Assembly (NCBI GenBank): GCA_019359615.1
Contig: JAHHHA010000020.1
Span: forward strand, 51,963 to 115,962
Direction: 5' to 3'
Source of the DNA: Cyanosarcina radialis HA8281-LM2
Lineage (GTDB): Bacteria > Cyanobacteriota > Cyanobacteriia > Cyanobacteriales > CCAP-1448
DNA: 64,000 bases
The translations under genes and the position numbers were made by a program. Below the pieces are notes generated by a model. That model was not told the origin of the DNA, did no database searches, and saw only the letters and a list, made by a program, of their open reading frames with translations. Shown here piece by piece: positions 630 to 25,747 of this stretch. The stretch's first letter is position 1. Each line of letters starts with the position of its first letter.

Positions 630-811
630 TCTCTCCCGCTGGGAACCTAAATTCGATAGGAATTCCCAGCATATTCTTTTGCCCGCTCTTCTTTGGAGGG
701 TGCAAAGGCAAAGCGGTTCGGCAGAACCAAGCCAAAAGATCGCAGCGCTCGATTGTGCCTGACTGAGAGATCGCTTTGGCAAGATATCTACACATTTGCA
801 AATAGACCGAA

Positions 812-1207
812 ATGGCTCGACAACCTACTAAAAAAACTGGCCCCAAAAAACAAAAGCGGAACGTACCTAACGGCGTAGCCTACATCCAGTCCACCTTCAA
901 TAACACGATCGTGACCATTACTGATGCTAAAGGAGAAGCAATTTCCTGGGCATCAAGCGGTTCGAGTGGCTTTAAAGGGGCGAAAAAAGGAACTCCATTT
1001 GCGGCTCAAACTGCTGCTGAAAGTGCAGCGCGGCGAGCGACCGAGCAGGGAATGCGTCAAATTGAAGTCATGGTGAGCGGTCCGGGTGCAGGGCGAGAAA
1101 CTGCAATCAGGGCCCTTCAAGGTGCGGGACTGGAAATCACCCTGATTCGCGACGTTACTCCAATACCACATAATGGTTGCCGACCTCCCAAACGGCGTAG
1201 AGTCTAA
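812..1207 (+). CDS. rpsK: 30S ribosomal protein S11
   Basis: This is a 131-residue S11, a platform protein of the small subunit near the mRNA exit. Recognisable segments are [18 protein letters not shown] near residue 20, the central [19 protein letters not shown] and the C-terminal [15 protein letters not shown]. Length and termini match the family. It is followed by a 166-bp gap containing iterated GTCAAAA motifs (about 1254-1279) and then rpoA, so rpoA may be translated from its own Shine-Dalgarno site within the same transcript. Confidence 0.98.
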
Positions 1208-1373
1208 TATCGCTACGCTCCAAGTCAAAAGCTTGCAGTGAGCAAAGCGAATGTGTCAAAAGTCAAAAGTCAAAAAGTCGGTCATTAGCCATCTACATGG
1301 ATAGCGACAGGCGACGAAAGACAAAAGACAAAGAAGAAATGGCTATTGTGTACGAACAAGGGAGGTCACTTGA

Positions 1374-2333
1374 GTGGCACAGTTTCAGATTGAGTGTGTA
1401 GAGTCAAAAACGGAGAAAACCCAGAGTCAATATAGCAAATTTGTTCTAGAGCCTTTAGAACGCGGTCAAGGAACGACTGTTGGTAACGCCTTACGGAGAG
1501 TGCTGCTGTCAAATTTGGAAGGAACAGCAGTAACGGCCGTAAGGATTGCTGGTGTCAACCACGAATTTGCCACTATTCCTGGGGTGCGGGAAGACGTGCT
1601 AGAAATTATCCTCAACATGAAGGAAATCGTTCTCAAAAGCCATACTTCTCAACCCCAACTCGGCAGGCTAGCGGTTCAAGGTTCCCCCCAAGGAGCCATA
1701 ACTGTAACGGCGAGTAATTTCACTCTGCCCTCGGAAGTGGAGATGGTGAATCCCCATCAATACGTGGCGACTATAGCACCAGGAGCCACTTTAGAGATGG
1801 AGTTTCGCATCGAAAAAGGTAAAGGGTATCGGGCCGTAGAGCGAGCCAGGGAAGAATCTACAGCTTTAGACTTTCTCCAAATAGATGCGGTGTTCATGCC
1901 CGTCCAAAAGGTGAACTATACCGTGGAAGATACCCACGTCGATGGAGCCTTAGAAAGAGATCGATTGCTGTTAGAAATTTGGACTAATGGCAGCTTGAGT
2001 CCTCAAGAAGCTTTGGGAGAAGCATCTAGAATTCTGGTAGAGTTGTTCAGCCCGCTGAAGGAAGTTAGCTGGGAGCCGAGGCAAGACGAGCGGCCGGATG
2101 ACGGCAACACGATGAATCAAATCCCGATCGAAGAATTGCAGTTGTCAGTGAGAGCTTATAACTGTCTGAAACGGGCGCAGATTAATTCAGTGGCAGATTT
2201 GCTCGATTACACTCAAGAAGATCTTTTAGAGATCAAAAACTTCGGTCAAAAATCGGCAGAAGAGGTAATTGAAGCTTTGCAGCAACACTTGGGCATCACT
2301 CTGCCCCACGAAAAACCAGGAAAATCGGGGTAA
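1374..2333 (+). CDS. rpoA: DNA-directed RNA polymerase subunit alpha
   Basis: This 319-residue protein is RNA polymerase alpha, which dimerises to nucleate core enzyme assembly and contacts activators and UP elements through its C-terminal domain. The N-terminal domain shows the dimerisation segment LERGQGTTVGNALRRVLLSNLEG near residues 27-50. The C-terminal domain (about 245-310) includes LQLSVRAYNCLKRAQINSVADLL and NFGQKSAEEVIEAL. The start is GTG at 1374, with GGAGGT at 1361-1366 as ribosome binding site. It lies between rpsK and rplQ, the conserved alpha operon arrangement. Confidence 0.98.
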   Translation: MAQFQIECVESKTEKTQSQYSKFVLEPLERGQGTTVGNALRRVLLSNLEGTAVTAVRIAGVNHEFATIPGVREDVLEIILNMKEIVLKSHTSQPQLGRLAVQGSPQGAITVTASNFTLPSEVEMVNPHQYVATIAPGATLEMEFRIEKGKGYRAVERAREESTALDFLQIDAVFMPVQKVNYTVEDTHVDGALERDRLLLEIWTNGSLSPQEALGEASRILVELFSPLKEVSWEPRQDERPDDGNTMNQIPIEELQLSVRAYNCLKRAQINSVADLLDYTQEDLLEIKNFGQKSAEEVIEALQQHLGITLPHEKPGKSG

Positions 2334-24103: not shown

Positions 24104-25471
24104 TTAACTAGCAGGCAAAGACCAATCAAGTTCTGTTTGTTGGGCTTGGTTCAAAGCATCATTAATCTTAGAAAAGGGACGGCTGCCAAAAAAGCCATTG
24201 CTGGCAGATAAAGGAGAAGGGTGGGCACTTTTAATGATGGTATGTTTTTGGTCGTCAATTAACTTAGCTTTTTGTTGGGCATAGCGTCCCCAGAGGACAA
24301 AAACTACATGAGGTTGTTGTTGGCTGACTGCCTGGATAATTGCATCGGTGAAACGTTCCCAGCCTTTGTCTTTGTGAGAGTTGGGCTGGTGAGCGCGAAC
24401 CGTTAACACGGCATTGAGCAACAGCACGCCTTGACGCGCCCAGTGGGTAAGATCTCCATGTTTGGCAGGAACAATGTTAAGTTCTTGGGCTAACTCGGTA
24501 AAAATATTTCGCAGCGAAGGGGGCAGTTTGACTCCTCGTTTGACAGAAAAGCTCAAACCGTGGGCTTGCCCTTCATCGTGGTAAGGATCTTGACCGAGAA
24601 TGACTACTTTAACCCGATCGATTGGCGTTAATTCCAAAGCTGTAAACATCTCTGCTGGCGGCGGGAAGACTGCCTGAGTTTGACGTTCTAAATTCACAAA
24701 CTCCAGCAGTTCTCGAAAGTAAGGCTTTTGGATCTCGTCTTTCAAAGCAGTTTTCCAGCTTTGGCTGTGGAAGAGATCTATTGCAGAAGAACTTGATGAG
24801 ACTGAATCTGCTACTTTATGTTGGATTTTTCCCCCCTGAGAAATGGAGGTAGAGGGGATCTGATTTTCGATCGATCTAGTCAGGGAGCTAATTTCTTCTG
24901 GAGGGGTCATAGCTTTTGGTTTGGTACTCGATGTCTCGACTCCATTTTGCGGGCAAAAGTCGAGGAAGATACAGCGATCGCATTCTGGTAATTTGGCTTT
25001 GCAAGTATAGCGGCCGTGCATTACCACCGCTGGACCCCAGAACGTCCAAGCGTCTGATGGTACTAAATCCATTAAATCGCGCTCGATGCGATCGGGGTTT
25101 CGAGCTTCCGATAGCCCCAAACGCTGACTCACTCTAGCAACGTGAGTATCGACGATAATCCCAGAAGGGATATTAAAACAGCAGTTGAGGACGACATTGG
25201 CAGTTTTGCGGGCAATTCCAGGAATCGAGGTTAACTCTTCCATGGTGTGGGGAACTTTACCGCCAAAACGCTCGACCAAAGTTTGGCAAACCATCTGCAC
25301 TGTTTGAGTTTTTTGCTGATAAAATCCAGTCGGCTTGAGTTCTGCTGCTAAAGTTGCCGTGTCAGCCTTGGCAAAATCTTGAGGCGTTTGATATTTCTGG
25401 AATAAAGTAGCAGTTACTTCATTGACCCGCTCGTCGGTACATTGAGCGGCGAGAATCGTCGCTACTAGCAT
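24104..25471 (-). CDS. Endonuclease III - uracil-DNA glycosylase fusion
   Basis: The 455-residue frame joins two base-excision repair enzymes. Residues 1-178 are endonuclease III (Nth): the helix-hairpin-helix with catalytic Lys is IPGIARKTANVV (K89), the catalytic Asp is in VDTHVARV (D108), and the 4Fe-4S cluster ligands are C157, C164, C167 and C173 (C-x6-C-x2-C-x5-C). Residues 179-245 are a Ser-rich linker. Residues 246-450 are family 1 uracil-DNA glycosylase (Ung) with VVILGQDPYHDEGQAHGLSFS (catalytic D295) and HPSPLSA (417-423). Nth removes oxidised pyrimidines; Ung removes uracil. The first ATG (25471) falls inside the Nth fold, and the homologous PHATYELNWQTPEQM segment lies upstream in frame without any ATG, GTG or TTG. 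The open frame reaches 25726, so the true start is uncertain. Confidence 0.92.
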   Translation of the reverse strand: MLVATILAAQCTDERVNEVTATLFQKYQTPQDFAKADTATLAAELKPTGFYQQKTQTVQMVCQTLVERFGGKVPHTMEELTSIPGIARKTANVVLNCCFNIPSGIIVDTHVARVSQRLGLSEARNPDRIERDLMDLVPSDAWTFWGPAVVMHGRYTCKAKLPECDRCIFLDFCPQNGVETSSTKPKAMTPPEEISSLTRSIENQIPSTSISQGGKIQHKVADSVSSSSSAIDLFHSQSWKTALKDEIQKPYFRELLEFVNLERQTQAVFPPPAEMFTALELTPIDRVKVVILGQDPYHDEGQAHGLSFSVKRGVKLPPSLRNIFTELAQELNIVPAKHGDLTHWARQGVLLLNAVLTVRAHQPNSHKDKGWERFTDAIIQAVSQQQPHVVFVLWGRYAQQKAKLIDDQKHTIIKSAHPSPLSASNGFFGSRPFSKINDALNQAQQTELDWSLPAS

Positions 25472-25747
25472 TTGTTCTGGAGTTTGCCAGTTCAGTTCGT
25501 AAGTGGCATGAGGATATACAGCTTGCAGTCGCTCTAAAATCGTACTAATTTGAGAGAAAAGATTTGAAACTCGATCTTTGGCGCTATCGGTTTGAGGATC
25601 GGATATCGGCTCGATCGCCTCTATTTGCCCTGCCCTCGTCCAGATTTCGATCGCCGATTCCCAGCCTCGATCGCCGCTAACAATTTGGCGACAGTGTAAC
25701 GCACCACTAAAGCTGTGTAATTTTAATTATGTATTTCGTATTTTCGT

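What the first reader, a model, noticed from the sequence alone, without database searches (positions are those of the whole stretch)
24104..25570. Endonuclease III fused to uracil-DNA glycosylase
One frame carries complete catalytic sets of both Nth (K89, D108, 4Fe-4S cysteines) and Ung (D295, HPSP). They act on different pyrimidine lesions, oxidised bases and uracil, so one polypeptide could scan for both. I do not recall this as a standard architecture.
Basis: partly seen in the sequence, partly recalled or inferred. Interest (0 to 1): 0.7.

Follow-up and report, generated by a model that had tools for sequence, protein, structure and literature searches.

The report
Fused uracil-excising and DNA-nicking enzyme
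In this cyanobacterium one open reading frame joins two DNA-repair enzymes, endonuclease III and uracil-DNA glycosylase, which would likely let one protein cut out uracil and then nick the strand at the same spot; the same join occurs in other bacteria, and no paper on it was found in the library searched.

Summary
The fusion is real. On the minus strand (stop 24104-24106, frame open to 25726) one frame carries an endonuclease III (TIGR01083) and then a family-1 Ung (TIGR00628), both above cut-off and with complete catalytic residues, joined by a variable, predicted-disordered linker. It is not unique: of the 120 best-ranked database relatives, 119 have both Pfam domains, and 52 add a second, degenerate Ung. 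All 121 sequences checked (window included) keep the Nth K and D and the first Ung's D, N and H. Sorangium and Iningainema tapete carry the same kind of nth directly before ung as two genes. Full-length fusions: 2 of 60 relatives (own genome included), 1 of 292 in a cyanobacterial sample. Ung data reject one clade of fused Ungs; Nth data do not. The genome has a separate housekeeping-type nth but no other family-1 ung. Best reading: Ung makes an abasic site and the tethered Nth lyase nicks it (inferred). Caveats: no ATG/GTG/TTG start precedes the full Nth domain; the public gene call here is a 268-aa Ung alone; two other fusion genomes have extra Ungs; no activity was tested.

The parts
24107..25726 (-). 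open frame with both enzymes (540 codons, stop 24104-24106)
24926..25558 (-). endonuclease III domain (residues 12-222 of the 495-residue reading)
   Evidence: TIGR01083 251 bits, cut-off 211.7; 1orn/2abk alignments; folded in the model
25205..25207 (-). Nth lysine K129, aligned with K120 of E. coli Nth
   Evidence: kept in 121 of 121
25148..25150 (-). Nth aspartate D148
   Evidence: kept in 121 of 121
24953..25003 (-). 4Fe-4S cysteine motif C-x6-C-x2-C-x5-C (C197-C213)
   Evidence: four Cys in 121 of 121
24770..24952 (-). linker between Nth and Ung
   Evidence: 39% identity to G018 against 71% and 67% for the domains; pLDDT under 50 at residues 235-267; length 20-89 in 69 two-domain members
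24110..24769 (-). family-1 uracil-DNA glycosylase domain (residues 275-494)
   Evidence: TIGR00628 282 bits, cut-off 185.75; PDB relatives; folded in the model
24578..24595 (-). GQDPYH motif with D335
   Evidence: Asp kept in the first Ung of 121 of 121
24212..24223 (-). HPSP motif with H457
   Evidence: His kept in the first Ung of 121 of 121
25472..25726 (-). 5' part of the frame without any ATG, GTG or TTG
24908..24910 (-). internal ATG at which the public 268-aa Ung-only gene call (P0241) begins

Best explanation
One open reading frame encodes an endonuclease III joined to a family-1 uracil-DNA glycosylase, and the two halves likely work in sequence: Ung would remove uracil and hand the abasic site to the Nth lyase, which would nick the strand. 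Shown: single frame, both catalytic sets, variable linker, full-length relatives, and tandem nth-ung gene pairs of the same Nth type in other genomes. Inferred: translation as one chain, both activities, hand-over of the abasic site. The Nth half may also act alone on oxidised pyrimidines, a job that a second nth in this genome can also do, whereas the fused Ung is the only family-1 Ung found here. The fusion probably arose by joining neighbouring nth and ung genes, perhaps more than once, and reached cyanobacteria sporadically.
For: Both families above curated cut-offs in one frame. Full-length one-frame relatives in G018, G580 and G585 and in the database list. Nth K and D, first-Ung D, N and H in 121 of 121, while the second Ung of the three-domain class lost the Asp in 52 of 52, so loss is possible when function is not needed. 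Codon-position differences to G018 are 0.25/0.11/0.60 in Nth and 0.31/0.12/0.59 in Ung but 0.49/0.49/0.53 in the linker. The same Nth type stands directly before ung as a separate gene in four Sorangium strains and in Iningainema tapete (trees). In G000, G018 and four paired genomes (G323-G326) the fused or paired Ung is the only family-1 Ung matched, while another Nth is present. Own genome: Xth but no Nfo match.
Against: No activity, product or domain contact was shown; pTM is 0.56. No ATG/GTG/TTG start precedes the full Nth domain and the public gene call is Ung only. G580 and G585, two other genomes with the fusion, have two and one further Ung matches, so 'the only Ung' does not hold in all. 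Xth is present and could process abasic sites. Nannocystis (G329) has a related Nth and an Ung about 60 kb apart, so linkage is not needed.
Confidence: 0.5

Rival explanations
1. Two independent repair enzymes share a chain: one protein searches DNA for both uracil and oxidised pyrimidines, and the gain is co-expression or shared scanning, not hand-over of the abasic site.
For: Both catalytic sets kept in 121 of 121; variable, probably flexible linker.
Against: A separate housekeeping-type nth is present in this genome and in five others with fusion or pair, so the oxidised-base task is already covered; that argument is indirect.
Confidence: 0.27
2. In this genome the Nth half is no longer made: translation starts at the internal ATG 24910 and gives a stand-alone Ung of 268 aa, and the Nth half is a relic that lost its start.
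For: No ATG/GTG/TTG start for the full Nth domain; public gene call P0241 is Ung only; no Nth product of this locus in the listed hits.
Against: No stop in the Nth half, complete motifs, 71% identity to G018 and a coding-type pattern of codon-position differences; end branches in the trees are 0.24-0.27 for Nth and 0.25 for Ung. A very recent loss would leave the same picture.
Confidence: 0.15
3. The Nth half serves mainly as a DNA-binding anchor for Ung, its own catalysis being unimportant.
For: Another Nth is present in the genome.
Against: Catalytic K and D kept in 121 of 121, unlike the second Ung of the three-domain class.
Confidence: 0.05
4. Assembly or sequencing error that joined two neighbouring genes.
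For: Unfused tandem pairs exist; one assembly, reads not available.
Against: Independent full-length fusions in G018, G580, G585 and in the database list, among them Minicystis rosea on a 16-Mb contig.
Confidence: 0.03

Closest known systems
Endonuclease III (Nth; TIGR01083; PDB 1orn, 2abk)
   Same: Whole domain, catalytic K and D, 4Fe-4S cysteines
   Different: C-terminal family-1 Ung after a linker; belongs to another Nth branch than the cyanobacterial housekeeping Nth
Family-1 uracil-DNA glycosylase (Ung; TIGR00628; PDB 2boo, 1akz)
   Same: Whole domain, GQDPYH, HPSP
   Different: Carries an N-terminal Nth; in the three-domain relatives a second, degenerate Ung follows
Tandem nth-ung gene pairs of Sorangium cellulosum and Iningainema tapete
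   Same: Same gene order and same Nth branch
   Different: Two separate genes a few bases apart; the Iningainema Ung groups with solo Nostocales Ungs, not with the window's
Database proteins named 'uracil-DNA glycosylase/endonuclease III' (JGI) and Minicystis rosea 'Uracil-DNA glycosylase, family 1'
   Same: Same Nth-Ung order over 96-99% of the query
   Different: 54-63% identical in the two-domain rows seen; 52 of the 120 listed have a further Ung domain
Ada-AlkA fusions (PMC1839093, passages seen)
   Same: A base-repair domain fused to a partner that is a separate gene elsewhere
   Different: There a regulator with a glycosylase; here two enzymes of base excision

Membership tests
Endonuclease III (Nth) | Match to the curated family model above cut-off | tested here: met
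   TIGR01083 251.1 bits, cut-off 211.7
Endonuclease III (Nth) | Catalytic Lys and Asp and four Fe-S cysteines | tested here: met
   K129, D148, C197-C213
Endonuclease III (Nth) | Complete N-terminus from a standard start codon | tested here: not met
   No in-frame ATG/GTG/TTG before ATG 25471; the domain sequence itself is complete in the frame
Endonuclease III (Nth) | Excision of oxidised pyrimidines and abasic-site lyase activity | not testable with these tools
   Needs purified protein
Family-1 Ung | Match to the curated family model above cut-off | tested here: met
   TIGR00628 282.4 bits, cut-off 185.75
Family-1 Ung | GQDPYH and HPSP motifs | tested here: met
   Residues 333-338 and 457-460
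Family-1 Ung | Uracil excision | not testable with these tools
   Needs purified protein
Nth-Ung fusion architecture | Both domains in one frame in independent genomes | tested here: met
   G000, G018, G580, G585; 119 of 120 listed proteins with both Pfam domains
Nth-Ung fusion architecture | Translated as one chain in this organism | not testable with these tools
   Start codon unclear; public call is Ung only
Nth-Ung fusion architecture | All fused members form one clade (one origin) | tested here: inconclusive
   Ung data reject one clade, p-AU 0.0002; Nth data do not, p-AU 0.21; fusion and later exchange or fission cannot be told apart

The most novel reading that the evidence does not exclude
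A modular one-protein uracil-repair enzyme, built repeatedly by joining one particular Nth lineage to different Ungs, that carries out uracil excision and strand incision in one pass; its three-domain form has added a degenerate second Ung as a dedicated DNA- or lesion-holding module.
Probability: 0.35. Interest if true: 0.65.

Novelty: new variant of a known kind. Interest (0 to 1): 0.5.

Why it matters
Base-excision repair is usually drawn as separate enzymes that pass a fragile abasic site along. A natural fusion of its first two steps, possibly assembled more than once, makes the hand-over question directly testable with one protein and its split halves, and the three-domain form asks why cells keep a second Ung without the usual catalytic Asp. 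It also shows an annotation gap: the locus here is called as a plain Ung, and several relatives are filed under one half's name.

Tried and rejected
Assembly artefact: set aside because of independent full-length fusions. Mobile carriage: of 278 plasmid records and 121 phage records with any match, 0 have one place covering 80% of the query. Host of the three-domain class: none in 317 genomes of the class of Sorangium (limit 1e-110; the one match is Sorangium's pair read through its stops) and none in 392 genomes of the phylum of a Planctomycetota MAG (limit 1e-90; the one match is an Ung only), so its organism stays unknown. Conserved position: the AAA-SH3 gene pair beside the fusion is present in the stretches of 7 of 7 relatives taken, with neither the fusion nor the protease-TPR gene beside it (stretches of 3.7 to 8 kb, so a more distant copy would be missed). 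dN/dS: dS is saturated for both domains, so codon-position differences are given instead. Trees are 'quick' ones with SH-aLRT support only and hold a subset of the fusions (every second two-domain protein and about every sixth three-domain one, plus named picks). Ten rows were dropped from the second Nth tree for size, 6 rows (possible fragments, long branches) before the Nth test, and 10 rows (long branches and a few others) plus the 6 second-Ung rows before the Ung test. 'Solo' rows from the protein database are solo by protein length; their gene neighbourhoods were not seen, and one (P0154) is the Sorangium paired Nth itself. The tested group, all fused rows, is set by architecture, but the test was run after the trees had been seen. 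Literature: six searches (listings and starts of abstracts seen) and term passages of PMC8307549, PMC1839093 and PMC11164402 showed no Nth-Ung fusion; subscription papers and preprints are not held.

Full report
What is in the sequence. The finding lies on the minus strand. The frame that stops at 24104-24106 is open upstream to 25726 (540 codons). It matches endonuclease III (PF00730; TIGR01083, 251 bits against a cut-off of 211.7) and then family-1 uracil-DNA glycosylase (PF03167; TIGR00628, 282 bits against 185.75). Counting from 25591 (495 residues), the Nth lysine is K129 (aligned with K120 of E. coli Nth, 2abk), the aspartate D148, the Fe-S cysteines lie at 197-213, the Ung GQDPYH at 333-338 and HPSP at 457-460. 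That these are the catalytic residues is recalled knowledge of both families.

Organism. 

The start codon. Between the upstream stop and ATG 25471 there is no in-frame ATG, GTG or TTG. In P0052, P0050 and P0002 27 to 35 residues precede the place of that ATG, so starting there would cut off the first part of the Nth domain. In-frame ATT, ATC and ATA codons exist upstream; which, if any, is used is unknown. The G018 homologue runs to its contig edge and also shows no ATG or GTG start, only a TTG inside the first helix. The public gene call for the window's contig is a 268-aa Ung that begins at the internal ATG 24910 (P0241), and no product of the Nth half is among the 120 listed hits of the Nth search, whose best is 71% identical. 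This is the main doubt about the fusion as a protein here. Against decay of the Nth half: no stop, complete motifs, 71% identity to G018 (Ung 67%, linker 39%), and codon-position differences of 0.25/0.11/0.60 in Nth and 0.31/0.12/0.59 in Ung against 0.49/0.49/0.53 in the linker.

Other repair genes of the genome. There is a separate nth on C41 (47% identical; it groups with cyanobacterial housekeeping Nth), further HhH-GPD matches on C37 and C5 and one below cut-off on C33, one Xth (control rings in 9 of 14 genomes) and no Nfo match (control rings in 10 of 14). The only family-1 Ung match is the fusion; the other PF03167 protein, on C54, is of another UDG family and carries an intein-like insert (its family-4-like nature is my reading).

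How common it is. Among 60 relatives, own genome included, a full-length one-frame match occurs in 2 (G000, G018). In 292 genomes drawn from the phylum it occurs in 1, G000 itself (limit 1e-60, at most five candidates scored per genome). In 282 genomes of the phylum of Sorangium, 2 have both halves in one open frame (G580, G585, limit 1e-70). In the protein database 3,524 proteins match among 7,994 scored candidates and the best 120 are listed: 119 have both Pfam domains precomputed, and P0116 only Ung, though its Nth K, D and cysteines are present. The list is ranked by likeness to the query, so it says nothing about the share of fusions among all Ungs. Of 133 loci with an Ung held at that point, 12 have an Nth in the same stretch: 6 fused (three of these are the window itself) and 6 tandem (two of these are the same Sorangium strain); 121 have none, though several stretches are short.

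Tandem pairs. In Sorangium cellulosum (So ce26, So0157-2, So0008-312, So ceGT47) and in the cyanobacterium Iningainema tapete the nth stop lies a few bases before the ung start. The Nths of the pairs put into the trees fall in the same clade as the fused ones.

Three-domain class. Of the 120 proteins, 52 exceed 600 aa and have a second Ung domain (80 to 255 bits). In 121 sequences (69 two-domain, window included, and 52 three-domain) the Nth K and D and the first Ung's D, N and H are all kept. The second Ung has Asp in 0 of 52 (Glu 44, Ser 4, Ala 3, Gly 1), His in 18 of 52 and Asn in 48 of 52. It is degenerate at the active site, but Glu is still an acid, so altered rather than absent chemistry cannot be excluded. 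The model of P0045 shows three folded parts and two linkers with pLDDT under 50.

Origin. The Nth halves of fusions and pairs lie in one clade with Nths named Myxococcus, Archangium and Scytonema, apart from the cyanobacterial housekeeping Nth (SH-aLRT 98). The Nth data do not reject a single clade of the fused rows (p-AU 0.21); the Ung data do (p-AU 0.0002). Either fusions arose more than once, or the Ung part was exchanged or split off afterwards; the trees cannot tell gain from loss. Support is SH-aLRT from quick searches only. The fusion sits beside an AAA-SH3 gene pair that the 7 relatives examined also have, without the fusion beside it, and in G018 the fusion is on another contig than that gene pair.

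Mechanism. Ung leaves an abasic site and Nth is a lyase on abasic sites (established, recalled). In G000, G018 and the four paired genomes G323-G326 the fused or paired Ung is the only family-1 Ung matched while another Nth is present, which points to a gain from linking the two steps. Against it, G580 and G585 have further Ungs, Xth could also process the abasic site, and Nannocystis keeps a related Nth and an Ung about 60 kb apart. No activity, product or domain contact was shown; the two-domain model has pTM 0.56 and a linker of pLDDT under 50.

Verdict. A real and recurrent fusion of two well-known enzymes, rare in the cyanobacteria sampled, often named in databases by one half, and without a paper in the library searched (passages). 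New variant of a known kind.

Noticed in passing
L181 (G000:C54:143900-147500), 811-2259, minus strand: A second uracil-DNA-glycosylase-superfamily gene of the same genome (PF03167, 120 bits) is interrupted by an intein-like insert of about 247 residues (PF14890 27.8 bits, below its cut-off of 35.8) inside the conserved stretch ending NVVKC / CRPPGNR.
   Followed up: partly
P0001-P0048, P0051, P0064, P0067, P0116: Three-domain relatives, Nth-Ung-Ung: the second Ung has Glu (44), Ser, Ala or Gly in place of the catalytic Asp in 52 of 52 but keeps the Asn in 48 of 52. Their organism was not found.
   Followed up: partly
L012:1177-2202 (+) and L013:1501-2484 (-): Ungs of two related cyanobacteria (G024, G049) have an N-terminal extension of about 90 residues in frame that matches no Pfam family.
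   Followed up: no
window 24104-24910, minus strand: The public gene call at this locus is a 268-aa Ung starting at an internal ATG, so the Nth half seems to have no listed product.
   Followed up: partly
L006 (G000:C5:61298-64717), 1426-1920: A further HhH-GPD glycosylase match in the own genome has one in-frame TAA inside the match, perhaps a broken gene.
   Followed up: no
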